From Streptomyces sp. HUAS ZL42 (GTDB lineage: Bacteria; Actinomycetota; Actinomycetes; Streptomycetales; Streptomycetaceae): a DNA stretch of 64,000 bases. Made by a program: the position numbers and the translations under genes. The notes below the pieces were generated by a model. It made no database searches, was not told the DNA's origin, and saw nothing but the letters and a program-made list of their open reading frames with translations. The stretch's first letter is position 1. Every line of letters begins with the position of its first letter. Positions 35,827 through 62,917 of the stretch are shown here, piece after piece. The stretch lies in contig NZ_CP160403.1 in NCBI RefSeq assembly GCF_040782645.1, positions 3,844,001-3,908,000 on the forward strand. Direction: 5' to 3'.

Positions 35827-35838
35827 CTACGCGCGTAG
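35827..35838. promoter_or_regulatory. Nucleoside-regulon operator 1 (CTACGCGCGTAG) at the PNP promoter
   Basis: A perfect 12-bp palindrome 26 bp before the start codon of the PNP gene. A -10-like TACTCT at 35851-35856 places the operator at the -35 position, and the transcription start would fall at the GTG, giving a leaderless mRNA. The same palindrome is upstream of deoC, add and the nucleoside transporter operon. Confidence 0.75.
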
Positions 35839-35863
35839 GCCCTGACCGGCTACTCTCGTCGGC

Positions 35864-36688
35864 GTGAACGCATCTCTTCTTCCGGACGACATCCAGGGCG
35901 ACCCCCACGCCGCCGCCGACGCCGCGGCCGCGCGCCTGCGCGAACTGACGCGCGCCGAGACCCACGACGTCGCCCTCGTGATGGGCTCCGGCTGGGCACC
36001 GGCCGTCGACGCACTGGGCGCGCCCGACGCCGAGCTCCAGGTCACCGAGCTGCCCGGCTTCCCGCCGCCGGCGGTCGAGGGACACGGCGGCAAGATCCGC
36101 TCGTACAAGATCGGTCACAAGCGTGCGCTGGTCTTCCTGGGCCGCACGCACTACTACGAGGGGCGCGGGGTCGCCGCGGTGGCGCACGGTGTGCGTACGG
36201 CGGTGGCGGCGGGCTGCAAGACCGTCGTCCTCACCAACGGCTGCGGTGGGCTGCGCGAGGGCATGCGTCCCGGGCAGCCGGTGCTGATCAGCGACCACAT
36301 CAACCTCACGGCCACGTCGCCGATCGTGGGGGCGAACTTCGTCGACCTGACGGACCTGTACTCGCCGCGGCTGCGGGCGCTGTGCAAGGAGATCGACGCC
36401 ACGCTGGAGGAGGGCGTCTACGCGCAGTTCCCCGGGCCGCACTACGAGACGCCGGCGGAGATCCGGATGGCGCGGGTCATCGGGGCGGATCTGGTGGGCA
36501 TGTCGACGGTGCTGGAAGCGATTGCTGCGCGGGAGGCCGGGGCCGAGGTGCTGGGCATCTCGTTGGTGACGAATCTTGCGGCGGGGATGACGGGGGAGCC
36601 GCTGAACCATGAGGAGGTTCTGCAGGCGGGGCGGGATTCTGCCGCGCGGATGGGGGCGTTGCTGGTGCAGGTGCTGGGGCGTTTGTAG
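35864..36688 (+). CDS. Purine-nucleoside phosphorylase (trimeric class)
   Basis: 274 residues from GTG 35864. Motifs: LVMGSGWAP with the phosphate-binding Ser, [34 protein letters not shown], and the purine-binding [25 protein letters not shown]. The final [19 protein letters not shown] matches the trimeric PNP/MTAP fold. It cleaves purine (deoxy)ribonucleosides to base and (deoxy)ribose-1-phosphate. The next gene along is a phosphomutase that would convert the sugar phosphate. Operator 1 overlaps the promoter. Confidence 0.93.
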
Positions 36689-36689
36689 G

Positions 36690-37790
36690 AGGGGGTTCGC
36701 CCACCCGCCCACCCGACTCGGTCGGATGAGGGGCCACCGTCCCTGGGGCTCCGCCCCAGACCCCGGACGCCGCGCCCGTCGGACGGCGGGCACCCTCGAC
36801 CTGGGGCTCCGCGACTCGGTTGGACAAGAAGGCACCCCGGCTGGGGCTCCGCCCCAGACCCGGCGGGGACTGCGTCCCCAGCACCCCGCGGAGCCCGGCC
36901 CCCGCACCTCAGGGGATCGGGAACCTGCACCCCCAGGCTCCGCCCCCGCAACCTGCGGAGGTCCGGCCCCAGCACCCCGCGGAGCCCGGCCCCTGCACCT
37001 CGGGGGGATCCGGAACCTGCACCCCCAGGCACCGCCCCCGCAACCCGCGGAGGTCCGGCCCCAGCACCCCGCGGAGCCCGGCCCCTGCACCTCGGGGGGA
37101 TCCGGAACCTGCACCCCCAGGCACCGCCCCCGCAACCCGCGGAGGTCCGGCCCCAGCACCTCGGGGGGATCCGGAACCTGCACCCCCAGGCTCCACCACA
37201 ACCCGCGGAGGTCCGGCCCCAGCACCCCGCGGAGCCCGGCCCCTGCACCTCGGGGGGATCCGGAACCTGCACCCCCAGGCACCGCCCCCGCAACCCGCGG
37301 AGGTCCGGCCCCAGCACCCCGCGGAGCCCGGCCCCTGCACCTCGGGGGGATCCGGAACCTGCACCCCCAGGCTCCACCCCACAACCCGCGGAGGTCCGGC
37401 CCCTGCACCTCGGAGGGATCCGCACCCTGCACCCCCAGGCTCCACCCCACAACCCGCGGAGATCCGGCCCCTGCACCTCGGAGGGATCCGCAACCTGCAC
37501 CCCACAAGGCTCCACCCCCGCAACCCGCGGAGGTCCGGCCCCAGCACCCCGCGGAGCCCGCCCCCCGCACCTCGGGGGATCCGATCCCCGCACCACGGGG
37601 GGATCCGGCCCCCGCACCCCGGGGGGATCCGGCCCCCGCACCTCGGGAGGGATCAGGAACCGCACCCCCACAAGGCTCCACCCCCGCAACCCACCCGGGC
37701 ACGGCGATCCCACAGCCCATGTCCCCACATCCCTGGACCAAGGCAAGACCCCGCACTCCTCCGGCACAATGTCCCGCTCCTTCCCCGTTC
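36690..37790. repeat. Nested GC-rich tandem repeats with a ~23-bp base unit
   Basis: After the PNP stop the sequence contains hairpins such as GGGGCTCCGCCCC (around 36745 and 36805) and then, at about 36860-37680, an array of related ~23-bp units with cores like CCGGAACCTGCACCCC, CCGGCCCCAGCACCCC and CCGGCCCCTGCACCTC. Copies of CGGGGGGATCCGGAACCTGC begin near 37001, 37093, 37162, 37251 and 37343; spacings of 92, 69, 89 and 92 are close to multiples of 23. Further units with GGAGGGATCCG begin at 37411 and 37479. No gene is visible, and the long open frames on both strands reflect composition. Together with the segment up to 38068 it makes a 1.4-kb gene-free gap. Confidence 0.8.
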
Positions 37791-37819
37791 CCCTCCCAAT
37801 CCCGGCCCCCTCAACCCCG

Positions 37820-37925
37820 GCCCGTCCGGCGTTTGAGGACGAGGCCGTTCAGGTCGGCTGTGGGGGTCTGGGGGCGCAGCCCCCGGCGGGGTCGAAGGGG
37901 CGGAGCCCCCGAGGTGGGACGGGCA
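37820..37925. repeat. Dispersed intergenic repeat (inverted copy)
   Basis: CCGGCGTTTGAGGACGAGG is the reverse complement of the block in the 22466-22720 repeat. It is followed by GGGGGCGCAGCCCCC and GGGGCGGAGCCCCC hairpins. Located 145 bp before the phosphomutase gene. The rest of the 37926-38068 stretch presumably holds its promoter. Confidence 0.7.
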
Positions 37926-38068
37926 GGGGCGGCGGGGGCGAGAAACCACGCCGTGCCGAACAGCGGCGGCCCGCCGCGGGTACCCATCCCCCAGGGGCAC
38001 ACGGGCGCATACTCCATAGGCACCCGCACACACTACGAACCGCACACCGAACGAGAGGTTGACCCGAC

Positions 38069-39700
38069 GTGCACGACGATCTCATCGCCCGGGCCAAGGC
38101 GTGGCTGGCCGAGGACCCCGACGCGGAAACCCGTGCGGAACTCGCCAAGCTGATCGACGCCGAGGACCACGCCGAGCTCGCCTCGCGTTTCAGCGGCACC
38201 CTCCAGTTCGGCACCGCGGGCCTGCGCGGCGAGCTCGGCGCCGGCCCCATGCGCATGAACCGCTCCGTCGTCATCCGCGCCGCCGCCGGCCTCGCCGCGT
38301 ACCTGAAGAAGCACGGCCGCACCGACGGCCTCGTGGTCATCGGCTACGACGCCCGTCACAAGTCCGCCGACTTCGCCCGCGACACCGCCGCCGTGATGAC
38401 GGGTGCCGGTCTCCGGGCCGCCGTGCTGCCCCGCCCCCTCCCCACCCCCGTCCTGGCCTTCGCCATAAGGCACCTCGGCGCCGCCGCCGGCGTGGAGGTC
38501 ACCGCCAGCCACAACCCGCCCCGCGACAACGGCTACAAGGTGTACCTCGGGGACGGATCCCAGATCGTTCCCCCCGCGGACGCGGACATCGCCGCCGAGA
38601 TCGACGCGATCACCACCCTCACCACCGTCGCCCGCCCGTCCGACGGCTGGGAGACCCTCGACGACTCCGTCCTCGACGCCTATCTCGCCCGCACGGACGC
38701 CGTACTCGCCCCGGATTCCCCCCGCACCGCCCGCACCGTCTACACCGCCATGCACGGCGTCGGCAAGGACGTCCTCCTGGCCGCCTTCGAACGCGCCGGC
38801 TTCCCCACCCCCGACCTCGTCGCCGAGCAGGCGGAGCCCGACCCGGACTTCCCGACCGTCGCCTTCCCCAACCCGGAAGAGCCCGGCGCCATGGACCTCG
38901 CGTTCGCCAAGGCCCACGAGACCGGCCCCGACCTCGTCATCGCCAACGACCCCGACGCCGACCGCTGCGCCGTCGCGGTCCAGGACGGCGACGGCTGGCG
39001 CATGCTCCGGGGCGACGAGGTCGGCTCCCTCCTCGCCGCACACCTCGTCGAGCGCGGGGCGACCGGTACCTTCGCCGAGTCGATCGTGTCCTCCACTCTC
39101 CTCGGCCGGATCGCCGAGAAGGCGAACCTGCGCCACGAGGAGACCCTCACCGGCTTCAAGTGGATCGCCCGCGTCGACGGCCTTCGCTACGGCTACGAGG
39201 AGGCCCTCGGCTACTGCGTCGACCCGGACGGCGTGCGCGACAAGGACGGCATCACCGCCGCCCTGCTCATCACCGAACTGGCCTCCGAGCTCAAGGAGCG
39301 GGGGCGCAGCCTCCTCGACCTCCTCGACGACCTCGCGGTCGAGCACGGGCTGCACGCCACCGACCAGCTCTCGGTCCGGGTCCAGGACCTGTCGGTCATC
39401 GCCGATGCCATGCGGCGGCTGCGCGAGCAGCCTCCGACCGAGCTCGCCGGGCTGCCCGTCACCCGCGCCGAAGACCTCACGCTGGGCACCGCCAAGCTCC
39501 CGCCCACCGACGGCCTGCGCTACACCCTCACCGGCGCCCGCGTCATCGTCCGCCCCAGCGGCACCGAGCCCAAGCTGAAGTGCTACCTGGAGGTCGTCGT
39601 GCCCGTGTCCTCGCGCGGCGACCTCCCGGCCGCCCGCGCCAAGGCGGCGGACCTGCTGGCCGCGATCAAGCGGGACCTCTCGGCGGCCGCCGGCATCTGA
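38069..39700 (+). CDS. Phosphomannomutase/phosphopentomutase family enzyme
   Basis: 543 residues from GTG 38069, with GAGAGG about 9 bp upstream. Alpha-D-phosphohexomutase fold: FGTAGLRGELGAGPMRMN, the phosphoserine loop VEVTASHNPPRDNGYKVY (Ser ~145), Mg loop NDPDADRCAV, sugar loop EEALGYCVDP and phosphate loop VRPSGTEPKLK. Enzymes of this branch include PgmB2-type phosphopentomutases; beside PNP and deoC the likely role is interconversion of (deoxy)ribose-1- and -5-phosphate. A glucose/mannose phosphate role cannot be excluded from sequence alone. Confidence 0.88.
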   Translation: MHDDLIARAKAWLAEDPDAETRAELAKLIDAEDHAELASRFSGTLQFGTAGLRGELGAGPMRMNRSVVIRAAAGLAAYLKKHGRTDGLVVIGYDARHKSADFARDTAAVMTGAGLRAAVLPRPLPTPVLAFAIRHLGAAAGVEVTASHNPPRDNGYKVYLGDGSQIVPPADADIAAEIDAITTLTTVARPSDGWETLDDSVLDAYLARTDAVLAPDSPRTARTVYTAMHGVGKDVLLAAFERAGFPTPDLVAEQAEPDPDFPTVAFPNPEEPGAMDLAFAKAHETGPDLVIANDPDADRCAVAVQDGDGWRMLRGDEVGSLLAAHLVERGATGTFAESIVSSTLLGRIAEKANLRHEETLTGFKWIARVDGLRYGYEEALGYCVDPDGVRDKDGITAALLITELASELKERGRSLLDLLDDLAVEHGLHATDQLSVRVQDLSVIADAMRRLREQPPTELAGLPVTRAEDLTLGTAKLPPTDGLRYTLTGARVIVRPSGTEPKLKCYLEVVVPVSSRGDLPAARAKAADLLAAIKRDLSAAAGI

Positions 39701-39857
39701 GGATCAGACACCAGCATTCAGCCCGACCACTGAGGTCCTTGTGGGGTGCCCCGGCCGGCGGCACCCCATCGGGTGATTCGCACACGGCGGCCGACGCATG
39801 CTCCACGGTGTGCCCGATCGGTCACGCGGGCGGCACACCCGGGCCGGCAAGTCCCAA

Positions 39858-40574
39858 CTACCCCACCGCCACCAGAATCACCAACAACAACGCCCCCGCC
39901 ACCGCCGGCCCCACAACCTCCCAGGCCCACCGCACGGTCACCTCACCCTGCGCCGTCGCGGCCTTCTCCCGTGCCGCCAGCAGCTCCCGCAGGTCGTCCA
40001 TGATCTTGTCGGCCTCCGCCCTGGCCGGTCCGTCCTCCACGAAGCCGCCGTGCTGCCTCGAGAAGCCACCGGCCAGGCCACCGCCGAGACCGCCGGCCAG
40101 GCCGCCGCGCCGCCCGCGCCCGTCCCGCCCCGCGGCCTTCTCCGCCGCCGCCCGGGCCTCCTGCCGTGCCGCGCGCTTCCTGGCCCGCAGGGAGACGGGA
40201 ATGGACCACAGCTGGAACTTCGCGCCCGCCTTGTCGACGACCTCGTTCGAGTAGCCGGACCGCAGGGAGGCCACCTGCCCCCAGGGCAGCACGACGACAC
40301 GGAACGGGTTGCGGACGCGCAGCCGGTCGTCGCCGGCGTAGACCGCGGGACGGAGCGTGAACGCCGTGATCAGTGGCACGACGAAGATCAACGCAGCGAG
40401 CGCCAGCCAGGGTGTCCGTCCGTGCCCGGCGACGATCGCGTCGACACCGAGCCAGCCCGCGACGGCGAGCAGCAGGACACCGCCGACGATGCCCATGGGC
40501 GACCGGTAGATCCGGTCCTTGGAGCCGGGTGCCGAGGGCTTCGGCGGTGGTGACTGGTGCTCGGGGGTCGTCAT
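39858..40574 (-). CDS. Membrane-anchored PH-domain protein
   Basis: 238 residues. Cytoplasmic N-terminus, two membrane helices (GIVGGVLLLAVAGWLGVDAIVAG; WLALAALIFVVPLITAFTL), then a bacterial PH-like domain (VYAGDDRLRVRNPFRVVVLPWGQVASLRSGYSNEV). A Gly/Arg-rich region (GRRGGLAGGLGGGLAGGF) precedes a final hydrophobic helix (VVGPAVAGALLLVILVAVG). Proteins of this type are common in Streptomyces; the function is unknown. Divergent from deoC, 106 bp away. Confidence 0.85.
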   Translation of the reverse strand: MTTPEHQSPPPKPSAPGSKDRIYRSPMGIVGGVLLLAVAGWLGVDAIVAGHGRTPWLALAALIFVVPLITAFTLRPAVYAGDDRLRVRNPFRVVVLPWGQVASLRSGYSNEVVDKAGAKFQLWSIPVSLRARKRAARQEARAAAEKAAGRDGRGRRGGLAGGLGGGLAGGFSRQHGGFVEDGPARAEADKIMDDLRELLAAREKAATAQGEVTVRWAWEVVGPAVAGALLLVILVAVG

Positions 40575-40655
40575 GGTCCCGATTCTGCCCGACGCCTGCG
40601 ACGAGGCTCGTTCCGGTACCTCCGCACAGGATGAGCAGTGGGGGGTGTACAGTCG

Positions 40656-40667
40656 CTACGCGCGTAG
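40656..40667. promoter_or_regulatory. Nucleoside-regulon operator 2 (CTACGCGCGTAG) at the deoC promoter
   Basis: A perfect copy of the 12-bp palindrome. TATGCT at 40669-40674 follows at once as the likely -10, and TGTACA (40646-40651) is a possible -35 17 bp away, so a bound repressor would sit between the two elements. The -10 puts transcription start near GTG 40681. Confidence 0.75.
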
Positions 40668-40680
40668 ATATGCTCGTCTG

Positions 40681-41651: not shown

Positions 41652-43088
41652 ATGGCTTCCGTATTTGAGTACGCACCGGCGCCCGAGTCCCGCTCGATCG
41701 TCGACATCGCCCCCTCCTACGGCCTCTTCATCGACGGCGAGTTCGTGGATGCGGCCGACGGCAAGGTCTTCAAGACGGTCTCTCCGTCGACGGAGGAGGC
41801 CCTCTCCGAGATCGCGCAGGCCGGCGCCGAGGACGTCGACCGTGCCGTGAAGGCCGCCCGCAAGGCCTTCGAGAAGTGGTCCGCGCTGCCCGGTTCCGAG
41901 CGCGCCAAGTACCTCTTCCGCATCGCCCGCATCATCCAGGAGCGCAGCCGCGAACTCGCCGTCCTGGAAACCCTGGACAACGGCAAGCCCATCAAGGAGA
42001 CGCGGGACGCCGACCTGCCCCTGGTGGCCGCGCACTTCTTCTACTACGCGGGCTGGGCCGACAAGCTCGGGCACGCCGGCTTCGGCGCGAACCCGCAGCC
42101 GCTGGGCGTGGCCGGCCAGGTCATCCCGTGGAACTTCCCCCTCCTGATGCTGGCGTGGAAGATCGCCCCGGCGCTCGCGACCGGCAACACGGTCGTTCTG
42201 AAGCCGGCGGAGACCACCCCGCTGTCGGCCCTGTTCTTCGCGGACATCTGCCGTCAGGCGGGACTGCCCAAGGGCGTCGTCAACATCCTTCCCGGGTACG
42301 GCGACACGGGCGCCGCGGTCGTCGCCCACCCGGACGTGAACAAGGTCGCCTTCACCGGCTCCACGGCGGTCGGCAAGGAGATCGCCCGCACGGTCGCCGG
42401 CACACGCAAGAAGGTCACCCTCGAACTCGGCGGCAAGGGCGCCAACATCGTCTTCGACGACGCCCCGATCGACCAGGCCGTCGAGGGCATCGTGAACGGC
42501 ATCTTCTTCAACCAGGGCCAGGTGTGCTGCGCGGGCAGCCGGCTGCTGGTCCAGGAGTCGATCCAGGACGAGCTGCTGGACTCCCTGAAGCGCAGGCTCT
42601 CCACGCTGCGCCTCGGCGACCCCCTCGACAAGAACACGGACATCGGCGCGATCAACTCCGCCGAGCAGCTCTCGCGCATCACCTCGCTCGTGGAACTGGG
42701 CGAGGCGGAGGGCGCCGAGCGCTGGTCCCCGGAGTGCGAACTGCCCTCCTCCGGCTACTGGTTCGCGCCGACGCTCTTCACCAAGGTCACCCAGGCCCAC
42801 ACCGTCGCCCGGGACGAGATCTTCGGCCCGGTGCTGTCGGTCCTCACCTTCCGCACCCCGGACGAGGCCGTGGCCAAGGCCAACAACACCCCGTACGGCC
42901 TGTCGGCGGGCGTCTGGACGGAGAAGGGCTCGCGCATCCTGGCGGTGGCGAACAAGCTCCGCGCGGGCGTGATCTGGTCCAACACGTTCAACAAGTTCGA
43001 CCCGGCCTCGCCGTTCGGCGGCTACAAGGAGTCGGGCTTCGGCCGCGAGGGCGGCCGCCACGGCCTGGAGGCGTACCTCGATGTCTGA
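41652..43088 (+). CDS. Aldehyde dehydrogenase (NAD-dependent family)
   Basis: 478 residues, starting 5 bp after deoC. All catalytic features are present: PWNFPLLMLAWK with the NAD-binding region, FTGSTAVGK, catalytic Glu258 (TLELGGKGANIV) and nucleophile Cys292 (FFNQGQVCCAGSR), and the terminal PFGGYKESGFGREGG. The operon position after deoC suggests oxidation of acetaldehyde, or of a related aldehyde, formed by the aldolase. Cytoplasmic. Its 3' end overlaps the next ALDH-like gene by 8 bp. Confidence 0.94.
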   Translation: MASVFEYAPAPESRSIVDIAPSYGLFIDGEFVDAADGKVFKTVSPSTEEALSEIAQAGAEDVDRAVKAARKAFEKWSALPGSERAKYLFRIARIIQERSRELAVLETLDNGKPIKETRDADLPLVAAHFFYYAGWADKLGHAGFGANPQPLGVAGQVIPWNFPLLMLAWKIAPALATGNTVVLKPAETTPLSALFFADICRQAGLPKGVVNILPGYGDTGAAVVAHPDVNKVAFTGSTAVGKEIARTVAGTRKKVTLELGGKGANIVFDDAPIDQAVEGIVNGIFFNQGQVCCAGSRLLVQESIQDELLDSLKRRLSTLRLGDPLDKNTDIGAINSAEQLSRITSLVELGEAEGAERWSPECELPSSGYWFAPTLFTKVTQAHTVARDEIFGPVLSVLTFRTPDEAVAKANNTPYGLSAGVWTEKGSRILAVANKLRAGVIWSNTFNKFDPASPFGGYKESGFGREGGRHGLEAYLDV

Positions 43089-44022
43089 CAAGTCCCAGAA
43101 GACCGAGCGCGCCGAGCGCCTGTCCGTCTTCAAGACCTACAAGCTGTACGTCGGCGGGAAGTTCCCGCGTTCCGAGAGCGGCCGGGTGTACGAGGTGACG
43201 GACTCCAAGGGCAACTGGCTGGCGAACGCGCCGCTTTCGTCGCGCAAGGACGCCCGGGACGCGGTCGTCGCCGCACGCAAGGCGTTCGGGGTGTGGTCGG
43301 GCGCCACGGCGTACAACCGCGGTCAGATCCTGTACCGCGTCGCCGAGATGCTCGAGGGCCGCCGCGACCAGTTCGTCCGCGAGGTCGCCGACGCGGAGGG
43401 GCTGTCGCCCGCGAAAGCAAAATCAAACGCAGCGAAGGCGGCCGCCGTCGTGGACGCGACGATCGACCGCTGGGTCTGGTACGCGGGCTGGACCGACAAG
43501 ATCGCCCAGGTCGTGGGCGGCGGCAACCCGGTGGCCGGCCCGTACTTCAACCTCTCCTCCCCCGAGCCGACCGGCGTGGTCGCGGTCCTCGCCCCCCAGG
43601 AGTCGTCCTTCCTGGGCCTGGTCTCGGTGGTCGCCCCGGTGATCGCGACCGGCAACACGGCGGTCGTCGTGGCGAGCGAGAAGTCCCCGCTCCCGGCCCT
43701 GTCGCTCGCCGAGGTCCTGGCGACCTCCGACCTCCCCGGCGGTGTGGTCAACGTCCTCTCCGGCCGTACGGCGGAGATCGCGGCGCCCCTGGCCGCCCAC
43801 CAGGACGTGAACGCCATCGATCTCGCGGGCGCCGACGACGTACTGGCGAAGGAACTGGAGATCGCGGCAGCGGACAACCTGAAGCGAGTCCTTCGTCCAC
43901 AGCCTGTGGACGAAGCCGGCTGGTCGGCGACTCCCGGCCTCGACCGCATGACGGCGTTCCTGGAGACGAAGACGGTCTGGCACCCGACGGGGTCGCTGGG
44001 CGTGTCCGGCTCCTCCTACTGA
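43081..44022 (+). CDS. Truncated aldehyde-dehydrogenase-like protein lacking the catalytic domain
   Basis: 313 residues from ATG 43081, overlapping the full-length ALDH gene by 8 bp. The sequence follows the N-terminal two thirds of the ALDH fold (KLYVGGKFPRSESGRVYEV; RVAEMLEGRRDQFVREV; WVWYAGWTDKIAQVVGGGNP; GLVSVVAPVIATGNTAVVVASEKSPLPALSLAEVLATSDLPGGVVNVLSGR is given here only by its ends). The segment with the Glu and the catalytic Cys is missing: after LAGADDVLAKELEIAAADN the chain ends with a short DRMTAFLETKTVWHPTGSLG tail. No frameshift is seen; the reading frame is closed by TGA at 44020. It is a conserved pseudo-enzyme partner of the ALDH in deoC operons, not obviously a decayed gene. 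Confidence 0.85.
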   Translation: MSDKSQKTERAERLSVFKTYKLYVGGKFPRSESGRVYEVTDSKGNWLANAPLSSRKDARDAVVAARKAFGVWSGATAYNRGQILYRVAEMLEGRRDQFVREVADAEGLSPAKAKSNAAKAAAVVDATIDRWVWYAGWTDKIAQVVGGGNPVAGPYFNLSSPEPTGVVAVLAPQESSFLGLVSVVAPVIATGNTAVVVASEKSPLPALSLAEVLATSDLPGGVVNVLSGRTAEIAAPLAAHQDVNAIDLAGADDVLAKELEIAAADNLKRVLRPQPVDEAGWSATPGLDRMTAFLETKTVWHPTGSLGVSGSSY

Positions 44023-51160: not shown

Positions 51161-52324
51161 TCAGCCCGCCGATTCCTCGGAACCGCTGGTCGAAGCGGTC
51201 TGCTGGAACAGCCATTCGGCCTTCAGCTCTGCATATCCGGGCTTGATGACGTCATTGATCATCGCCAGTCGTTCATCGAAAGGAATGAACGCTGATTTCA
51301 TCGCATTGACGGAGAACCACTGCATGTCGTCGAGCGTGTAACCGAATGCGCCGACCAGGTGCTCGAATTCCCGGCTCATGCTCGTGCCCGACATCAGGCG
51401 GTTGTCCGTGTTGACGGTGGCGCGGAAGTGCAGGCGCCGCAGCAGGCCGATCGGATGCTCGGCGTACGACGCCGCCGCCCCGGTCTGGAGGTTGGAGCTG
51501 GGGCACATCTCGAGGGGGATGCGCTTGTCGCGGACGTAGGAGGCGAGCCGCCCGAGCTTGACCGAGCCGTCGGCGTGCACCTGGATGTCGTCGATGATGC
51601 GCACCCCGTGTCCGAGCCGGTCGGCGCCGCACCACTGCAGGGCCTGCCAGATGGACGGCAGGCCGAACGCTTCGCCGGCGTGGATGGTGAAGTGGTTGTT
51701 CTCGCGCTTGAGGTACTCGAAGGCGTCCAGGTGCCGGGTGGGCGGGTAGCCGGCCTCGGCGCCGGCGATGTCGAAGCCCACGACGCCCAGGTCCCGGTAC
51801 CGGTTGGCGAGTTCGGCGATCTCCAGGGCGCGGGCGGCGTGGCGCATGGCGGTGAGCAGGGCGCCGACGCGGATGCGGTGGCCGTTCGCCCTCGCCCGCC
51901 GCTCCCCTTCCCGGAAGCCCTCGTTGACGGCCTCGACGACCTCTTCCAGGGTCAGTCCGCCCTCGAGGTGCTGCTCGGGCGCGTACCGCACCTCGGCGTA
52001 GACGACGCCGTCCTCGGCGAGGTCCTCGGCGCACTCGGTGGCGACCCGCACGAGCGCGTCGCGCGTCTGCATGACGCCGACGGTGTGGGAGAAGGTCTCC
52101 AGATACCGCTCCAGGGAGCCGGAGTCGGCGGCCTCCCGGAACCAGACGCCGAGCTTGTCGGGGTCCGTTTCGGGCAGGTGGGAGTACCCGGTTTCCCGGG
52201 CGAGTTCGACGATCGTGCCGGGGCGCAGCCCGCCGTCGAGGTGGTCGTGCAGCAGAACCTTGGGCGCCCGGCGGATCTGGTCCGAGCTCGGGGTGCTGCC
52301 CGTCTGGATGCTCTGGCTCGTCAT
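51161..52324 (-). CDS. add: Adenosine deaminase
   Basis: 387 residues. Deaminates adenosine/deoxyadenosine to inosine/deoxyinosine. Metal and catalytic motifs are in place: HDHLDGGL (first His pair), TIHAGE (catalytic Glu), [10 protein letters not shown] and the [13 protein letters not shown] end. TAGAGT (52331-52336, minus strand) lies 6 bp upstream of ATG with no Shine-Dalgarno site, suggesting a leaderless transcript. Operator 3 is directly upstream. Supplies the PNP with inosine. The C-terminal ~15 residues are Ser/Gly-rich. Confidence 0.96.
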
Positions 52325-52340
52325 TTCCGCACTCTAACTC

Positions 52341-52352
52341 CTACGCGCGTAG
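52341..52352. promoter_or_regulatory. Nucleoside-regulon operator 3 (CTACGCGCGTAG) at the add promoter
   Basis: A perfect copy of the 12-bp palindrome, 17 bp before the add start codon and 4 bp upstream of the probable -10 TAGAGT (52331-52336). A bound repressor would occupy the promoter spacer. It also lies in the divergent region shared with the hydrolase-like gene at 52437. Confidence 0.75.
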
Positions 52353-57008: not shown

Positions 57009-57105
57009 GGCGTCCACGAGCGGTAGACCGGGCCGACGGCCCTAACTCATCGCGTCCGCACCCGTACCGCCCCGGGAGGGTCGGGCGTTTCGAGAAACGC
57101 GCAGG

Positions 57106-58389
57106 TCACGCGATGCGTTCCAGGACAACCGGCGACGCCTGGAACTCCGTCCCCGCCGCCCCGATGTCGTACGACCCGTCCACGGCCTGCAGCGCGTACT
57201 CGAAGCGTTCCGGGGTGTCCGTGTGGAGGGTGAGCAGGGGCCGGCCCTCGGTCACGGTGTCTCCCGGCTTGGCGTGGAGTTCCACGCCCGCCGCCGCCTG
57301 CACCGGGTCCTCCTTGCGGGCGCGCCCCGCGCCCAGGCGCCATGCCGCGATGCCGATGTCGTAGGCGTCCAGGCGGGTCAGGACGCCCGAAAACGGGGCC
57401 TTCACCACGTGCTGCTCACGCGACGTGGGCAGCGGTGCGTCCGGGTCGCCACCCTGGGCCGCGATCATGCGGCGCCAGACGTCCATCGCCGAACCGTCGG
57501 CCAGGGCCTTCGCCGGGTCGGCGTCCTTCACCCCGGCGGCGTCCAGCATTTCGCGGGCCAGGGCCAGGGTCAGCTCCACGACGTCCGCCGGACCGCCGCC
57601 CGCCAGGACCTCCACCGACTCGCGGACCTCCAGCGCGTTGCCCGCCGTCAGGCCCAGCGGGGTCGACATGTCCGTCAGGAGCGCGACCGTCTTCACGCCG
57701 TGGTCGGTGCCGAGGCCCACCATCGTGGACGCCAGTTCGCGCGCGTCCTCGATCGTCTTCATGAAGGCTCCCGTGCCCACCTTCACGTCCAGGACCAGGG
57801 AGCCCGTGCCCTCGGCGATCTTCTTCGACATGATCGAGGAGGCGATGAGCGGGATGGCCTCTACCGTGCCGGTCACATCCCGCAGCGCGTACAGCTTCTT
57901 GTCCGCCGGTGCCAGGCCGTCGCCCGCCGCGCAGATCACCGCGCCCGTGGTGTCCAGGACGTGCAGCATCTCCTCGTTCGAGAGCAGGGCCCGCCAGCCG
58001 GGGATCGACTCCAGCTTGTCCAGCGTGCCGCCCGTGTGTCCGAGGCCGCGGCCGGACAGCTGCGGGACCGCGGCCCCGCAGGCCGCCACCAGGGGGGCCA
58101 GCGGCAGCGTGATCTTGTCGCCCACGCCACCCGTGGAGTGCTTGTCCGCCGTCGGCCGGGACAGGGACGAGAAGTCCATGCGCTCGCCCGAGGCGATCAT
58201 GGCGGCGGTCCAGCGGGCGATCTCACGGCGGTTCATGCCGTTGAGCAGGATGGCCATGGCGAGGGCCGACATCTGCTCGTCGGCGACCTCGCCGCGGGTG
58301 TACGCGTCGATGACCCAGTCGATCTGCTCGTCACTGAGCTCACCGCGGTCCCGCTTGGTGCGGATGACGGAGATGGCGTCCATGGCCAT
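57106..58389 (-). CDS. deoA: Thymidine phosphorylase
   Basis: 427 residues from ATG 58389 (a second ATG two codons later is possible; GGAAGGAAAG lies just upstream). Cleaves thymidine/deoxyuridine with phosphate to base and deoxyribose-1-phosphate. Signature: DKHSTGGVGDKITLPLAPLV, then SGRGLGHTGGTLDKLESIPG, LALREVTATV-like KKLYALRDVTGTVEAIPLIA, and GSLVLDVKVGTGAFM. C-terminal barrel domain ends YDIGAAGTEFQASPVVLERIA. Last gene of the transporter-cdd-deoA cluster. A hairpin separates it from cdd. Confidence 0.95.
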   Translation of the reverse strand: MAMDAISVIRTKRDRGELSDEQIDWVIDAYTRGEVADEQMSALAMAILLNGMNRREIARWTAAMIASGERMDFSSLSRPTADKHSTGGVGDKITLPLAPLVAACGAAVPQLSGRGLGHTGGTLDKLESIPGWRALLSNEEMLHVLDTTGAVICAAGDGLAPADKKLYALRDVTGTVEAIPLIASSIMSKKIAEGTGSLVLDVKVGTGAFMKTIEDARELASTMVGLGTDHGVKTVALLTDMSTPLGLTAGNALEVRESVEVLAGGGPADVVELTLALAREMLDAAGVKDADPAKALADGSAMDVWRRMIAAQGGDPDAPLPTSREQHVVKAPFSGVLTRLDAYDIGIAAWRLGAGRARKEDPVQAAAGVELHAKPGDTVTEGRPLLTLHTDTPERFEYALQAVDGSYDIGAAGTEFQASPVVLERIA

Positions 58390-58428
58390 GGCTTTCCTTC
58401 CGGTGTTGCCGGGTAGTGCGAAGAGCAC

Positions 58429-58463
58429 GGCCCCTCCGAGCACCTGACAGGCTCGGAGGGGCC
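58429..58463. other. Intra-operon hairpin between cdd and deoA
   Basis: GGCCCCTCCGAGC (58429-58441) pairs perfectly with GCTCGGAGGGGCC (58451-58463) around a 9-nt loop. The cdd stop is at 58472 and the deoA start at 58389, so this strong stem lies in the 82-bp gap of an operon. It could be a terminator, an RNA-processing signal, or an attenuator that lowers deoA expression relative to the transporter. Confidence 0.75.
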
Positions 58464-58471
58464 GCATGGGG

Positions 58472-58864
58472 TTACTGGCCGAGATGGCCGGGGCCGAAGG
58501 CCTGGGGCAGCATCTCCGACAGCGGCAGGATCCCCTCGGGGGTCTCCAGGAGCAGGTCGGGGCCCCCGAACTCGTACAGCAGCTGCCTGCACCGGCCGCA
58601 CGGTACGAGGATCTCGCCCCTGCCGTCCACGCACGTGAAGTGCGTGAGCCGGCCGCCGCCGGTGTTCTGCAGCTCCGAGACCAGGCCGCACTCGGCGCAC
58701 AGGCCGAGGCCGTAGGAGGCGTTCTCCACGTTGCAGCCCGACACGAAACGCCCGTCGTCGACGAGGGCCGCCACGCCGACCGGGTAGCCGGAGTACGGGG
58801 CGTACGCCCGGGACATGGCGTCCCGGGCCACCGCACGCAGCTTCTCCCAGTCGACGGGGGTCAC
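58472..58864 (-). CDS. cdd: Cytidine deaminase
   Basis: 130 residues from GTG 58864, overlapping the permease stop by 4 bp. Converts cytidine/deoxycytidine to uridine/deoxyuridine. Zinc-binding motifs CAEC (in GLGLCAECGLVSEL, with catalytic Glu) and PCGRCRQLLYEFGG are intact; SGCNVENASYGL is the substrate loop. Typical tetrameric CDA of 130 residues. Confidence 0.96.
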   Translation of the reverse strand: MTPVDWEKLRAVARDAMSRAYAPYSGYPVGVAALVDDGRFVSGCNVENASYGLGLCAECGLVSELQNTGGGRLTHFTCVDGRGEILVPCGRCRQLLYEFGGPDLLLETPEGILPLSEMLPQAFGPGHLGQ

Positions 58865-60147
58865 TTGCCCTGTCCCTTCCGGTACCGCATGCCGTCGGCC
58901 TTGGGCATCCTGAGGCGCTGCGCGGACAGCGACAGCACGAGCAGGGTGACGACGTACGGCGTGGCGCCGACGAAGTCGTTCGGCACCTCGTCGGTGAACA
59001 GGTACCAGAGCAGGACGAGCGCGGCGACGAAGAGGGCGATCCCGCCCTGCCAGTGCGCCTTGCGGTACAGCTTCCAGCCCGCGAGCAGGGCGAGCAGGAC
59101 GACCAGCACGAGCAGCAGCGCGTGCACGGTCTCGCCGCCGCTGCGCAGCTGCAGCGCGTCCGAGTAGCCGAACAGGCCGGCGCCCATCGCCAGTCCACCG
59201 GGTCGCCAGTTGCCGAAGATCATGGCCGCGAGACCGATGTAGCCGCGGCCTCCGGTCTGGCCCTCAAGGTAGATGTGCGAGGTGACCAGCGCGAGGAAGG
59301 CGCCGCCGAGTCCGGCGAGACCGCCGGAGACGGCCACGGCCGCGTACTTGTACTTGTAGACGTTGACGCCGAGGGACTCCGCGGCGATCGGGTTCTCACC
59401 GCAGGAGCGCAGCCGCAGACCGAACGGGGTGCGCCACAGCAGCCACCAGCTGCCGACGAACAGCAGCACGGCCAGGATCGTCACCACGGACAGGTTGGTG
59501 ACCAGTCCGCCGAGGATGCCCGCGAGGTCGGAGATCAGGAACCAGTGGTGGTTCTCGACGGACTGGAGGCCGTCGGAGAGACCGGGCACGTCGACGTGGG
59601 GCAGCGAGTCGGCGGGCGGGGACTGCTTGGGGTTGCCGCCCGCGTCCGCGGCCTCGCCCTCCGAGAAGAAGAGCTTGGCGAGGTACTGGGTGATGCCGAG
59701 CGCGAGCAGGTTGACGGCGACACCGGAGACGATGTGGTCGACGCCGAAGGTGATGGTGGCGACGGCGTGCACCAGGCCGCCGAGGACACCGAAGCCGATG
59801 CCGCACAGCAGGCCGAGCCAGGGGCTGGACTGCCAGCCGATCCAGCCGGCGCCGAAGGTGCCGAGGATCATCATGCCCTCGAGGCCGATGTTGACCACGC
59901 CGGACCGCTCGGACCACAGGCCGGCGAGACCGGCGAGCGCGATGGGCACGGCGAGGCTGAGTGCCGCGGAGACCTGTCCGTCGGCGGTGAGCTGGTCGGC
60001 GCCGGTGATGACGCGGACCGCGGACACGAGGATCAGGGCACCCGCGACGATCATGAGGATCTGGCCGAGCGAGCGGCCCGACCGGGTGCGTCCGGTGTCC
60101 GCCTTGGGTGCCGCGGGCGGCGGCGTGTCTGTCATCGTGGCAGTCAT
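58861..60147 (-). CDS. Nucleoside ABC transporter permease (second subunit)
   Basis: 428 residues. Branched-chain-amino-acid/ribose-type permease with ~9-10 membrane helices: LAVPIALAGLAGLWSERSG, VVNIGLEGMMILGTFGAGW, HAVATITFGVDHIVSGVAVN and SGGLAGLGGAFLALVTSHIY. The GLEGMMILG block is characteristic of the BMP-nucleoside importers (YufQ/NupC-like). A Pro/Ala-rich cytoplasmic N-terminus precedes the first helix. ATG 60147 overlaps the TGA stop of the preceding permease by one base (TGATG). It is co-transcribed with the ATPase and cdd. Confidence 0.93.
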   Translation of the reverse strand: MTATMTDTPPPAAPKADTGRTRSGRSLGQILMIVAGALILVSAVRVITGADQLTADGQVSAALSLAVPIALAGLAGLWSERSGVVNIGLEGMMILGTFGAGWIGWQSSPWLGLLCGIGFGVLGGLVHAVATITFGVDHIVSGVAVNLLALGITQYLAKLFFSEGEAADAGGNPKQSPPADSLPHVDVPGLSDGLQSVENHHWFLISDLAGILGGLVTNLSVVTILAVLLFVGSWWLLWRTPFGLRLRSCGENPIAAESLGVNVYKYKYAAVAVSGGLAGLGGAFLALVTSHIYLEGQTGGRGYIGLAAMIFGNWRPGGLAMGAGLFGYSDALQLRSGGETVHALLLVLVVLLALLAGWKLYRKAHWQGGIALFVAALVLLWYLFTDEVPNDFVGATPYVVTLLVLSLSAQRLRMPKADGMRYRKGQGK

Positions 60148-61274
60148 CACGCCACCTCCTGCTTCTTGGTCGGGGCGGCGGCCTGGGCGGCGAGCTCGGC
60201 GCCGACCCGCTGCTGCTGGCGCTTGAGGCCGTAGCGGCGTACGACCTCGTAGGCGATGACGACGCACAGGACGATGACGCCCTGGATGACGCCGAGGATC
60301 TCCTTGTCGTAGCCCTCGAACTCGAGGTGGTTGGTGGTGCGCTCCAGGAAGCCCCAGAGCAGCGCGCCGAGCGCGATGCCGATCGGGTGGTTGCGGCCGA
60401 GCAGCGCGATGGCGATGCCGGTGAAGCCGATGCCCGAGGGGAAGTCGTTGCTGAACTGGTGGCTGTCGTTGAGGAGCGTCGGCATGCCGATCAGACCGGC
60501 CACGGCACCCGAGATGATCATGCTGGTGGCGATCATGCGCTTGACGCTGACACCGCTCGCCGTGGCGGCGGACTCGGACTGGCCGACGGTGCGCAGGTCG
60601 AACCCGAAGCGGGTGCGGCCGAGCACGAACCAGTACGCCACACCGACGACCACGGCGATCACGATGAAGCCCCAGAGCATGCCCGACGCGCCCGTGTCGA
60701 TGGTGAAGAACCACGAGTCCTCCGGCAGCGGCGTGGTCGACACCACGGTGCCGCCGGCCTGGAGCTCGGCGAGCTTCCCGGGCTGGAGGAGGTAGGCGAT
60801 GATCGCGGTGGCGATGGAGTTCAGCATGATCGTCGAGATGACCTCGCTGACGCCCCGGGTCACCTTGAGAATGCCGGCGATACCCGCCCAGAGGGCGCCC
60901 ACGCCCATCGCGCAGAGGATGATCAGCGGGACCGAGATGAAGCCCGGCAGGGTCAGCGCGCCGCCGAGCACCGCCGCGAAGAACGCGGCGAGCCGGTACT
61001 GGCCGTCGACGCCGATGTTGAACAGGTTCATGCGGAAGCCGATGGCCACCGCGACGCCCGCGAGGTAGTACGTGGTCGCCTTGTTGAGGATGTAGACCTG
61101 ACTGTCGCTGGCGGAGCCGTAGGTCACCATGTCGCTGAACGCGGCGCCCGGGTTCTTGCCGGTGGCGAGGATCACCAAGGTGGTGACGACGAGCGCGGCG
61201 ACGAGCGCGAGCAGCGGTGCCGCGATCCCGAGGAGCAGCCGCTCCTTGTCCATGCGTTGGGTGAACTTCTTCAT
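60147..61274 (-). CDS. Nucleoside ABC transporter permease (first subunit)
   Basis: 375 residues from ATG 61274, which overlaps the ATPase stop codon (ATGA). About 9 membrane helices. The FNIGVDGQYRLAAFFAAVLG motif and RGVSEVISTIMLNSIATAII are typical of YufP/NupB-like nucleoside permeases. The large loop near the middle (GGTVVSTTPLPEDSWFFTID) is extracytoplasmic. With the second permease and BMP lipoprotein it forms a nucleoside importer. Confidence 0.93.
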   Translation of the reverse strand: MKKFTQRMDKERLLLGIAAPLLALVAALVVTTLVILATGKNPGAAFSDMVTYGSASDSQVYILNKATTYYLAGVAVAIGFRMNLFNIGVDGQYRLAAFFAAVLGGALTLPGFISVPLIILCAMGVGALWAGIAGILKVTRGVSEVISTIMLNSIATAIIAYLLQPGKLAELQAGGTVVSTTPLPEDSWFFTIDTGASGMLWGFIVIAVVVGVAYWFVLGRTRFGFDLRTVGQSESAATASGVSVKRMIATSMIISGAVAGLIGMPTLLNDSHQFSNDFPSGIGFTGIAIALLGRNHPIGIALGALLWGFLERTTNHLEFEGYDKEILGVIQGVIVLCVVIAYEVVRRYGLKRQQQRVGAELAAQAAAPTKKQEVA

Positions 61275-62830
61275 CGGTCGTCGTCCTCTGCGTGCTCCAG
61301 GTGGCCGGTGGCCGCACCCGTCATGGCGGAGCCCAGCTCCTCGGGGGTGATCGTGGCGGGGTCGGCGTCGGCGACCAGACGGCCGCGGTACATCACCCGC
61401 AGGGTGTCGGAGAGCCCGATGAGCTCGTCCAGGTCGGCGGAGACCAGCAGTACGGCCATGCCCTCGCGGCGCGCCTCGCGGATGTGGTCCCAGATCGCGG
61501 CCTGCGCACCGACGTCCACACCGCGGGTGGGGTGGGCGGCGATGAGGAGCTTGGGTGCGTGGCTCATCTCGCGGCCGACGATCAGCTTCTGCTGGTTGCC
61601 TCCGGACAGCGAGGCGGCGGTCACCTCGATGCCGGGCGTGCGGACGTCGTAGGCGCTGATGATGCGTGCGGTGTCGGCGCGGGCCGCCTTGATGTCGATC
61701 ATCCCGCCGCGCGAGTTGGGCCGCTCGGTGACATGGCCGAGGATGCGGTTCTCCCACAGCGGCGCCTCGAGGAGCAGGCCGTGGCGGTGGCGGTCCTCGG
61801 GGATGTAGCCGACGCCGGCCTCGCGGCGCCGCCGGGTGGGGGCGTGGGAGATGTCGGTGCCGTCGAGCGTGATGACGCCGACGTCGGGATCGCGGATGCC
61901 CATGATCGCCTCGACCAGTTCGGACTGGCCGTTGCCCTCCACACCGGCGATGCCGAGGACTTCACCCTTGTGGATGGTGAAGGAGATCTCGTCGAGGATG
62001 ACCCGCTCGACGCCGTCGAGGTCCGTCTGGGTGAGGTGCAGCCCGTCCACCTTGAGGAGCGGGACGTCCGTGACGGTCGACTCCTCGGTTTCCGGGGTGG
62101 GCAGTTCGCTGCCGACCATCAGCTCGGCGAGCTGCTTGGCGGTGGTGGTCCTGGGCTCGACGGTGCCGACCGTGGTGCCGCGCCGGATGACGGTGATCTC
62201 GTCGGCGACGGACAGGACCTCTCCCAGCTTGTGGGAGATGAAGATGACGGTGAGCCCCTCGGCCTTCAGCTCGCGCAGGTTGTCGAAGAGGGCGTCGACC
62301 TCCTGCGGAACGAGGACGGCGGTGGGCTCGTCGAGGATGAGGGTCTTGGCGCCGCGGTAGAGGACCTTGAGGATCTCCACGCGCTGGCGGTCGGCGACGC
62401 CGAGCTCCTCCATGAGGACGTCGGGCCGGACGTTCAGCCCGTACGCGTCGGAGAGCTCCTTGATCTTCGCTCGGGCCTGGCCGCCGATGCCGTACAGCTT
62501 CTCCGCGCCGAGGACGACGTTCTCGAGGACGGTGAGGTTGTCGGCGAGCATGAAGTGCTGGTGCACCATGCCGATGCCGCGGGCGATGGCGTCGGCGGGG
62601 TTGTGGAAGGTGACCCGCTCGCCGTTCACGGTGATGGTGCCCTCGTCCGGCTGCTGCATGCCGTAGAGGATCTTCATCAGCGTGGACTTGCCGGCGCCGT
62701 TCTCACCGCACAGGGCGTGGACGGTGCCCGTGCGGACGGTGATGTCGATGTCCTTGTTGGCCACGACACCTGGGAAACGCTTGGTGATGCCGCGCAGTTC
62801 GACGGCAGCGGGAGGGCTGGACGCGTTGAT
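61271..62830 (-). CDS. Nucleoside ABC transporter ATP-binding protein (two-domain)
   Basis: Two ABC domains. Domain 1: Walker A GENGAGKSTLM, signature-like GVADRQRVEILKVL, Walker B TLILDEPTAVL. Domain 2 has VEGNGQSELVEAIMG in the P-loop (degenerate Walker A, as usual in this family), and SLSGGNQQKLIVGREMS. I extend the gene to 62830: the codons there read I-N-A-S-S-P-P-A-A-V-E-L-R-G-I-T-K-R-F-P-G-V, which is the conserved first beta strand of ABC domains, and a GAGGAG Shine-Dalgarno is 8 bp upstream of an ATC. No ATG, GTG or TTG occurs in frame there. If initiation needs GTG 62764, the protein (497 residues) would lack that strand. Confidence 0.9.
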   Translation of the reverse strand: MNASSPPAAVELRGITKRFPGVVANKDIDITVRTGTVHALCGENGAGKSTLMKILYGMQQPDEGTITVNGERVTFHNPADAIARGIGMVHQHFMLADNLTVLENVVLGAEKLYGIGGQARAKIKELSDAYGLNVRPDVLMEELGVADRQRVEILKVLYRGAKTLILDEPTAVLVPQEVDALFDNLRELKAEGLTVIFISHKLGEVLSVADEITVIRRGTTVGTVEPRTTTAKQLAELMVGSELPTPETEESTVTDVPLLKVDGLHLTQTDLDGVERVILDEISFTIHKGEVLGIAGVEGNGQSELVEAIMGIRDPDVGVITLDGTDISHAPTRRRREAGVGYIPEDRHRHGLLLEAPLWENRILGHVTERPNSRGGMIDIKAARADTARIISAYDVRTPGIEVTAASLSGGNQQKLIVGREMSHAPKLLIAAHPTRGVDVGAQAAIWDHIREARREGMAVLLVSADLDELIGLSDTLRVMYRGRLVADADPATITPEELGSAMTGAATGHLEHAEDDDR

Positions 62831-62905
62831 GGCGCACTCTCCTCGGGGAAAAGGGGCTGCGTAGGGGAGGGCAGGCGTCGGCGACGCTAGCGCGGCAACT
62901 CCATG

Positions 62906-62917
62906 CTACACGCGTAG
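62906..62917. promoter_or_regulatory. Nucleoside-regulon operator 4 (CTACACGCGTAG) before the transporter-cdd-deoA operon
   Basis: One base differs from the perfect palindrome of the other three sites. On the minus strand it overlaps TAGCAT (62903-62908), the likely -10 of the ATPase gene, about 75 bp before its start. On the far side, a 7-bp stem (CGGCGAG 62939-62945, CTCGCCG 62964-62970) lies just past the stop of the BMP gene and may end its transcript. Confidence 0.7.

What the first reader, a model, noticed from the sequence alone, without database searches (positions are those of the whole stretch)
35827..62917. Four copies of one 12-bp palindrome mark the local nucleoside regulon
CTACGCGCGTAG occurs exactly at 35827-35838, 40656-40667 and 52341-52352, and with one mismatch (CTACACGCGTAG) at 62906-62917. 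Each copy overlaps or adjoins a -10/-35 pair of a nucleoside gene: PNP, deoC, add, and the ABC transporter-cdd-deoA operon. A random 12-mer is not expected even once per 64 kb. The position (over the -35, in the spacer, or over the -10) suggests repression. The regulator is unknown; the in-window DeoR-family protein (32617-33585) is a natural candidate, but its own promoter lacks the palindrome.
Basis: partly seen in the sequence, partly recalled or inferred. Interest (0 to 1): 0.8.

Follow-up and report, generated by a model that had tools for sequence, protein, structure and literature searches.

The report
Family-wide nucleoside operator in Streptomyces
A 12-letter mirror-image DNA switch sits at the promoters of nucleoside-recycling genes throughout the sampled Streptomyces family, and near-copies also mark secreted nucleotidases and nucleases and a purine-synthesis operon, so one still unidentified regulator probably controls how these soil bacteria feed on nucleic acids.

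Summary
CTACGCGCGTAG is at 35827, 40656 and 52341, and CTACACGCGTAG at 62906. The three exact copies are the only ones in the 9.87-Mb genome. Exact copies occur in 199 of 199 sampled Streptomyces, 2-6 each, in 60 of 61 sampled Streptomycetaceae, and in 10 of 268 genomes elsewhere in the class. In 80 named Streptomyces loci chosen by PNP alone, all 80 PNP and all 65 deoC promoters found carry it exactly. It lies at the -35 or spacer, as a repressor site would. Recurring near-copies widen the regulon to purSQL, nucleotidases, secreted nucleases, a purine-type permease and a C-N hydrolase. In published S. lividans RNA-seq, PNP, deoC and add rise together. The regulator is unknown. The neighbouring DeoR-family protein was found in 31 of 31 family genomes but is a weak candidate: its promoter lacks the palindrome in 80 of 80 loci, and so do relatives outside the family. 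My searches of an open-access library found no description. Verdict: a real, widely conserved operator of an apparently undescribed nucleic-acid-scavenging regulon.

The parts
35827..35838 (.). Operator 1, CTACGCGCGTAG, over the -35 side/spacer of the PNP promoter
   Evidence: exact in 80 of 80 named Streptomyces PNP promoters
35851..35856 (+). Candidate -10 (TACTCT) of PNP, 12 nt after operator 1, 7 nt before the GTG
   Evidence: sequence; conserved TAc.CTC in the 41 of 42 promoters with <=1 mismatch, a sample enriched for the palindrome
35864..36688 (+). Purine nucleoside phosphorylase (PNP_UDP_1)
   Evidence: Pfam PF01048 E 8.6e-45
38069..39700 (+). Phosphohexo/pentomutase-like gene downstream of PNP
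   Evidence: NCBIfam mutase models below cut-off; gene
40656..40667 (.). Operator 2, CTACGCGCGTAG, in the -35/-10 spacer of deoC
   Evidence: exact in 65 of 65 deoC promoters found in the named Streptomyces loci
40646..40651 (+). Candidate -35 (TGTACA) of deoC
   Evidence: sequence
40669..40674 (+). Candidate -10 (TATGCT) of deoC
   Evidence: sequence; conserved ATATGCTC in 11 of 12 promoters with <=1 mismatch
   Evidence: gene; orthologs
41652..43088 (+). Aldehyde dehydrogenase following deoC
   Evidence: superfamily matches below cut-offs
43081..44022 (+). Second, short aldehyde-dehydrogenase gene
   Evidence: Aldedh profile 6-232 of 461
52341..52352 (.). Operator 3, CTACGCGCGTAG, in the add promoter spacer
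   Evidence: add promoters
52331..52336 (-). Candidate -10 (TAGAGT) of add
   Evidence: sequence
51161..52324 (-). Adenosine deaminase (add)
   Evidence: PF00962 E 6.6e-105
62906..62917 (.). Operator 4, CTACACGCGTAG, upstream of the ABC-cdd-deoA genes
   Evidence: same place in G013 (L360)
62903..62908 (-). Candidate -10 (TAGCAT) overlapping operator 4
   Evidence: sequence
62998..63900 (-). Bmp (PnrA-like) substrate-binding protein, upstream of operator 4
   Evidence: PF02608 E 3.3e-61
61271..62764 (-). ABC transporter ATPase (nucleoside type inferred from its neighbours)
   Evidence: PF00005 E 5.7e-49
58861..61274 (-). Two genes taken as ABC permeases from their position
   Evidence: gene calls, (no family scan)
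58472..58864 (-). Cytidine deaminase (cdd)
   Evidence: NF004064 above cut-off
57106..58389 (-). Thymidine/pyrimidine-nucleoside phosphorylase (deoA)
   Evidence: NF004490 above cut-off
32617..33585 (-). DeoR-family regulator; considered as the regulator and judged unlikely
   Evidence: HTH_DeoR and DeoRC

Best explanation
CTACGCGCGTAG is the operator of one dimeric transcriptional repressor that controls a nucleic-acid-scavenging regulon throughout Streptomycetaceae. With no inducer the dimer sits on the palindrome over the -35/spacer/-10 of each promoter and blocks RNA polymerase. When nucleic acids or nucleosides are broken down, an inducer releases it; a pentose-phosphate or a nucleoside is most likely. 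Enzymes for extracellular digestion, uptake, deamination, phosphorolysis and pentose catabolism are then made together. Near-consensus copies at purSQL and at secreted enzymes give weaker, lineage-specific control. Shown: the sites, their family-wide conservation, their placement and the target classes. Supported by published data: joint induction of PNP, deoC and add. Inferred: repression, a dimeric protein, the inducer, and that one protein serves all sites. The protein is probably encoded elsewhere in the chromosome rather than by the neighbouring deoR-family gene.
For: Family-wide: exact copies in 199 of 199 Streptomyces and 60 of 61 Streptomycetaceae, 16 of 17 genera, against 10 of 268 non-Streptomyces genomes of the class. 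Sample not chosen by the motif: PNP 80 of 80, deoC 65 of 65, and no other exact copy in 1.08 Mb. Six other genera: the 17 PNP, deoC and add promoters that could be located carry it with 0, 1 or (once) 2 mismatches, including those of G492, which has no exact copy. Own genome, <=1 mismatch: 17 of 23 places non-coding or at a gene start against 12 of 40 for the reversed palindrome, p 0.0009. Targets in nucleic-acid use: 10 of 23 against 0 of 40, p 9e-6; without the two least certain labels (C-N hydrolase, GmrSD_C protein) 8 of 23, p 1e-4; without also the four given sites 4 of 19, p 0.009 (labels were given after seeing the genes). purSQL promoter: 16 of 30 genomes at <=1 mismatch; 60 control palindromes mean 0.07, max 1. 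Expression: S. lividans PNP 5 to 64, deoC 7 to 69, add 11 to 49 TPM in one comparison with 136 up of 7496 genes.
Against: No regulator is identified: no regulator gene with a conserved copy was found (GntR: 1 of 24 orthologs). The transporter operon's site is not fixed, and that operon is absent from the S. lividans tables I read. Those three genes rose in a stressed CelA-producing strain, so the cause is unknown. Published argR-mutant data do not show the targets moving together: the SCO4914 aldolase protein is lower while a secreted nucleotidase (SCO2015) and another adenosine deaminase (SCO5662) are higher, and ArgR binds the pyk1-SCO2015 region (passages); WblC binds the SCO4914 promoter (passage). 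So at least some targets have other regulators too. purN and 5'-nucleotidase sites are lineage-specific (5 and 3 of 30; for purN one control palindrome reached 3). Some extra sites may be fixed by other constraints: rpoB leader, GmrSD_C within codons, purS leader in close relatives. Repression rather than activation is inferred from position and low basal expression.
Confidence: 0.8

Rival explanations
1. The in-window DeoR-family protein (32617-33585) is the repressor of these sites, with a deoxyribose- or ribose-phosphate as inducer.
For: Linked to PNP; present in 31 of 31 family genomes, best hits of the others at 75-96% identity; in the 21 family rows printed in frame (11 genera) the HTH is nearly invariant; HTH_DeoR and DeoRC domains; the only PDB sequence match is 7l6l, named deoxyribose operon repressor, E 1.7e-7.
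Against: No palindrome (best 3-5 mismatches) within 400 bp of deoR in 80 of 80 loci, and none at <=1 mismatch in 30 family loci of about 4 kb (two of them have a 2-mismatch hit, away from the promoter), though much of its promoter is conserved. Orthologs in 19 non-Streptomyces genomes (of 197 genomes searched) were read at 14 loci: other gene contexts and no palindrome at <=2 mismatches near deoR (four have a 3-mismatch hit); the three closest have GNTCR-N5-GNTCR repeats. Curated models are below cut-off (AgaR 185 of 260 bits, DeoR 73 of 244). A published network module centred on SCO4920 is described without nucleoside genes (PMC3224704, passages; that SCO4920 is this gene is recalled).
Confidence: 0.2
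2. Two or more unrelated regulators use the same palindrome: one for core salvage, another for secreted nucleases, nucleotidases or purSQL.
For: Core sites are exact or nearly so and fixed; the others are usually one mismatch away and lineage-specific. ArgR and WblC data show that some targets have further regulators.
Against: Exact copies also occur at purS, purN, a 5'-nucleotidase, a nuclease-like gene and a secreted family in some genomes, so the same sequence serves both.
Confidence: 0.12
3. The palindrome is not an operator but a promoter element, for instance part of an alternative sigma factor's recognition sequence or a structural element.
For: It lies in the core promoter.
Against: Perfect dyad symmetry with variable distance to the candidate -10 (12 nt in PNP, 1 in deoC, 4 in add) and sometimes two copies per promoter (L349; L101 with one exact and one 2-mismatch copy) fits a protein dimer, not a sigma contact.
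Confidence: 0.05
4. Chance or ancestry: the copies persist because the surrounding DNA is conserved.
For: purS, rpoB and M23-peptidase leaders are conserved as blocks.
Against: In the sample not chosen by the motif the palindrome is invariant across 80 species while most columns upstream of it vary; it is kept in rearranged clusters of other genera.
Confidence: 0.02

Closest known systems
E. coli DeoR/CytR control of nucleoside catabolism (recalled, apart from the calls cited)
   Same: Nucleoside phosphorylases, aldolase, deaminases and nucleoside uptake under common repression; a DeoR-family gene lies nearby
   Different: Operator differs from the 16-bp TGTTAGAA dyad (recalled); the target set adds purSQL, secreted nucleases and nucleotidases; the linked DeoR-family protein is below the DeoR model cut-off (73 of 244 bits) and is probably not the regulator
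PurR regulons of E. coli (LacI type) and B. subtilis (recalled; PunR paper PMC8376909 seen as passages)
   Same: Purine synthesis genes and a purine-type permease share one palindrome
   Different: Here mostly catabolic and salvage genes; operator sequence different from ACGCAAACGTTTGCGT (recalled). In E. coli add and purine synthesis respond in opposite directions to adenine
LacI-family operators with a central CpG (recalled)
   Same: 12-bp perfect dyad centred on CpG
   Different: No LacI-family gene was linked to the motif here; a lead only
NupR of Bacillus thuringiensis (GntR/HutC; seen as search listing and start of abstract)
   Same: Regulator of nucleoside uptake
   Different: Different lineage; operator not compared

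Membership tests
E. coli-type DeoR regulon | Nucleoside-catabolism genes share an operator | tested here: met
E. coli-type DeoR regulon | Operator is the TGTTAGAA/TTCTAACA dyad (recalled) | tested here: not met
   The shared sites are CTACGCGCGTAG-type; the E. coli dyad itself was not searched for
E. coli-type DeoR regulon | Linked regulator is a DeoR equivalog | tested here: not met
   NF007961 73 bits, cut-off 244
E. coli-type DeoR regulon | Linked protein has the HTH_DeoR and DeoRC domains | tested here: met
E. coli-type DeoR regulon | Regulator binds the operator; deoxyribose-5-phosphate induces | not testable with these tools
   needs EMSA and expression
PurR-type regulon | Purine biosynthesis operons carry the operator | tested here: inconclusive
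   purSQL 16 of 30 and purN 5 of 30 at <=1 mismatch; other pur genes not tested
PurR-type regulon | Operator ACGCAAACGTTTGCGT (recalled) | tested here: not met
   The shared sites are CTACGCGCGTAG-type; the E. coli operator itself was not searched for
GntR/FCD regulator at G000:4590370 as regulator | Autoregulatory palindrome conserved in orthologs | tested here: not met
   1 of 24 orthologous loci at <=1 mismatch; no ortholog at E<=1e-40 in 7 of 31 genomes

The most novel reading that the evidence does not exclude
A single, undescribed regulator encoded away from the cluster coordinates the whole route from extracellular DNA/RNA to cell metabolism in all Streptomycetaceae: secreted nucleases, 2',3'-cyclic and 5'-nucleotidases, nucleoside and nucleobase uptake, deamination, phosphorolysis, pentose and acetaldehyde oxidation, and purSQL. 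It would be a nucleic-acid recycling switch that couples lysis of old mycelium to feeding of new growth.
Probability: 0.48. Interest if true: 0.72.

Novelty: new variant of a known kind. Interest (0 to 1): 0.6.

Why it matters
Streptomyces make many antibiotics and recycle their own lysed mycelium; how nucleic-acid recycling is switched on is, as far as my searches go, not described. An operator this short and this constant across a family is an ideal bait for finding the regulator, and the target list makes clear predictions, including for unknown secreted proteins. If repression is confirmed, it also gives native inducible promoters likely to work across the genus.

Tried and rejected
GntR/FCD gene next to an own-genome near-copy (L009): not conserved. 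DeoR: see the rivals. LysR gene g46 near add: it lies by add and an MFS gene in several genera; LysR sites (T-N11-A, recalled) do not match; not tested further. Copies outside Streptomycetaceae: 9 of 12 copies in 7 of 10 genomes were read; none lay at a recognisable nucleoside gene (judged from N-terminal residues only). rpoB: the near-copy 30 nt upstream is in 4 of 4 genomes, but the whole leader is conserved, so it proves nothing. Direct-repeat operator for DeoR: 3 of 14 outside loci, shuffles mean 0.89 and max 3, and 3 of 43 family loci, shuffles mean 2.32, so weak evidence. Literature: ten searches showed no paper on this motif or regulon in the held open library; several lists were cut at 12-20 rows. 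I followed up seven papers by passages or sections (PMC3224704, PMC4848846, PMC6036246, PMC6302529, PMC3293853, PMC8376909, PMC7244524) and an eighth, PMC7157823. The exact 12-mer is in two papers on DNA structure or GapR (listing only); TACGCGCGTA with Streptomyces only in a telomere-resolvase paper (listing only). SAV4189, a MarR regulator, was reported not to bind an S. avermitilis add promoter and has another motif (passages).

Limits: gene calls came from my own GC-frame script, so starts are approximate. The promoter alignment mixes loci fetched because they hold the palindrome, so its counts are biased; one search is not chosen by the motif, but its 80 loci are the best-matching PNP relatives, all Streptomyces. 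Searches returned 31 matches but only 30 loci each were examined. In one search, 41 of 43 deoR promoters were read (two starts not found). In one search three of ten sequences (proteins 4-6) were wrong frames and gave nothing. The labels purS, purQ, purN, mshD and deoC are recognised from sequence, not from a family scan (mshD: GNAT domain only).
Full report
CHECK. The genome has 9,866,886 bases and the window is its 3,844,001-3,908,000 stretch; the three exact copies in the window are the only exact copies, with 23 places at up to one mismatch and 40 for the reversed palindrome. A Markov-2 estimate from the window gives 0.28 exact copies expected per genome and 0.0018 per 64 kb. At up to two mismatches the window count alone is not significant; the strength lies in exactness, position and conservation.

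CONSERVATION. The exact 12-mer occurs in 199 of 199 sampled Streptomyces (own genome included), 2-6 copies each, against 0-3 for the reversed control; in 60 of 61 sampled Streptomycetaceae, 16 of 17 genera; and in 38 of 296 genomes of the class, of which 28 are Streptomyces and 10 (of 268) are not, where the reversed control is no rarer. One locus per genome, the first listed, was fetched for 80 family genomes: 69 lie at PNP, deoC, add, the nucleoside ABC operon or a second add gene; the other 11 are L029, L033, L035, L053, L065, L076, L082, L088, L092, L093, L101. Of these 11, two are 5'-nucleotidase/mshD regions, one purS, two purN and two a secreted protein family; L029, L035, L076 and L082 have no such link.

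SAMPLE NOT CHOSEN BY THE MOTIF. A scan with the PNP protein gave 80 named Streptomyces loci, the best of 498 confirmed relatives. PNP promoters: 80 of 80 exact, 24-25 nt before the start codon. deoC promoters within reach: 65 of 65 exact. deoR: 80 of 80 without it (3-5 mismatches at best within 400 bp). The loci hold 145 exact copies in 1,079,493 bases, the sum of these two sets. In six other genera the 17 PNP, deoC and add promoters that could be located carry it with 0, 1 or, once, 2 mismatches (add was not recovered in G486), including G492, the one family genome without an exact copy.

REGULON. Places with up to one mismatch were read in four genomes (own genome, G013, G494, G506). Targets recurring in at least two of these genomes or in other family genomes: C-N hydrolase (L004, L318, L362); CpdB-like 2',3'-cyclic phosphodiesterase/3'-nucleotidase beside a pyruvate-kinase-like gene (L365, L349 with two sites, L321; by neighbourhood probably SCO2015, an inference); secreted 5'-nucleotidase-like (L013, L331, L336, L354; exact in L033, L053); ExeM/NucH-type extracellular nuclease (L366, L347, L333; exact in L105); GmrSD_C-domain secreted protein (L015, L345, L350, site inside the first codons); Xan_ur_permease family (L329, L340, L352); purSQL (L011); a secreted family with sequence RVLFDN (L372; exact in L088, L101, L109, L110, L115). 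Family assignments. L347 and L350 were assigned by likeness to their counterparts (L347 gave no Pfam match). NCBIfam matches of the nucleotidases and nucleases are below their cut-offs, partly because the loci cut the genes, and the C-N hydrolase's best model (N-carbamoylputrescine amidase) is also below cut-off, so its link to pyrimidine breakdown is a guess.

CHANCE CONTROL. In the own genome 17 of 23 places are non-coding or at a gene start and 10 belong to nucleic-acid use by my labels; for the reversed palindrome 12 of 40 are non-coding and none of those 12 has such a neighbour. The 12 neighbouring control proteins were all sent to Pfam; one is DisA, a c-di-AMP synthase, which I did not count. 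Functions at coding sites were not looked up in either set. The labels were given after seeing the genes; without the C-N hydrolase and GmrSD_C labels it is 8 of 23 (p 1e-4), and without also the four given sites 4 of 19 (p 0.009). Own-genome places with no such link include a PhoX phosphatase, a GntR gene, an M23 peptidase, DUF2530 and rpoB.

PURINE LINK. Upstream of purS, 16 of 30 family genomes carry a copy with one mismatch, 7 more have a two-mismatch hit (five of them at the purS position), 7 have none; 60 control palindromes of the same half-site composition average 0.07 regions at <=1 mismatch (max 1) and 1.52 at <=2 (max 14). purN: 5 of 30 (control mean 0.12, max 3); mshD/5'-nucleotidase: 3 of 30 (control mean 0.07, max 1).

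GEOMETRY. PNP: operator, 12 nt, TACTCT, 7 nt, GTG start. deoC: TGTACA-17-TATGCT with the operator in the spacer. add: operator, 4 nt, TAGAGT. Transporter: operator overlaps TAGCAT. The distance to the -10 varies while the dyad does not, which fits a protein dimer covering the promoter. Two copies stand in some promoters (L349, L101).

REGULATOR. The linked DeoR-family protein is in 31 of 31 family genomes. It has an HTH_DeoR and a DeoRC domain, and the only PDB sequence match is 7l6l, a deoxyribose operon repressor fragment. Against it: no operator at its own promoter, much of which is conserved, less so in the most distant genera; orthologs in 19 non-Streptomyces genomes, of which 14 loci were read, lie beside sugar transporters, an epimerase, glycosyltransferases or other genes and lack the palindrome at <=2 mismatches. 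I put it at 0.2. The GntR gene is not supported. No other candidate emerged; regulators elsewhere in the genome were not surveyed, and all genome-search calls are spent.

EXPRESSION. In S. lividans RNA-seq (PMC6302529; section 16 parts 1 and 2 of 3 read) PNP (SCO4917) rises from 5 to 64, deoC (SCO4914) from 7 to 69 and add (SCO4901) from 11 to 49 TPM in a CelA-producing strain; 136 of 7496 genes were up. Three of three by chance has p about 6e-6 if genes are independent. The strain shows DNA-damage and secretion stress, and the authors list these genes as not solely due to CelA. The transporter-cdd-deoA genes are not in the printed tables, which list genes of known function; the supplement was not read. 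That these SCO genes are the window's orthologs is inferred from product and order; I did not check the palindrome in S. lividans itself (S. coelicoflavus, L492, is among the 80). Other passages: PMC7244524 reports putative nucleases and SCO4901 more abundant together in S. coelicolor than in S. lividans; PMC7157823 lists the SCO4914 promoter among WblC-repressed promoters. In an argR mutant the SCO4914 protein is lower while SCO2015 and SCO5662 are higher (PMC3293853), so the targets do not always move together.

NOVELTY. Ten searches of the held open library showed no paper on this motif or regulon; subscription papers are not held, so it may be described there. A palindromic operator of a nucleoside regulon is a known kind; the sequence, the breadth from secreted nucleases to purSQL, and the missing regulator make it a new variant.

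Noticed in passing
L008:1501-1512, L328:1210, L339:1201, L359:1249: GTACGCGCGTAG lies 30 nt before rpoB in 4 of 4 genomes, but the entire leader from that point to the start codon is conserved, so it may be an RNA leader feature rather than an operator.
   Followed up: partly
window 33586-33665 (-): The deoR promoter is conserved over about 75 bp in most of the 41 family loci read, less in the most distant genera, with an imperfect inverted repeat GAACAAC-N4-GTTATTC and a TACTGT box 7 nt before a GTG start that suggests a leaderless transcript.
   Followed up: partly
window 43081-44022 (+): A 313-aa aldehyde-dehydrogenase-like gene matching only the first half of the family profile follows a full-length one after deoC, and is kept in related genera.
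   Followed up: no
L372:1331-2401, L088:1557-3011, L101:1538-2470, L109:1550-3001, L110, L115: A secreted family of unknown function (sequence RVLFDN...ETAGNADWI, some with a He_PIG domain) repeatedly carries the palindrome at its promoter; a nucleic-acid-related function is a prediction.
   Followed up: partly
L190, L191, L192 upstream of the deoR ortholog: Tandem GNTCR-N5-GNTCR repeats before DeoR-family genes followed by an ABC-transporter ATPase gene, a possible DeoR operator of another type.
   Followed up: partly
L005:1501-1512: A one-mismatch copy 215 nt before a PhoX-type alkaline phosphatase in the own genome; not recognised among the places read in the other three genomes.
   Followed up: no
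L036, L038, L041, L064, L108: A second adenosine deaminase gene, 61-64% identical to add in the four loci measured, also carries the exact palindrome at its start in several Streptomyces.
   Followed up: partly
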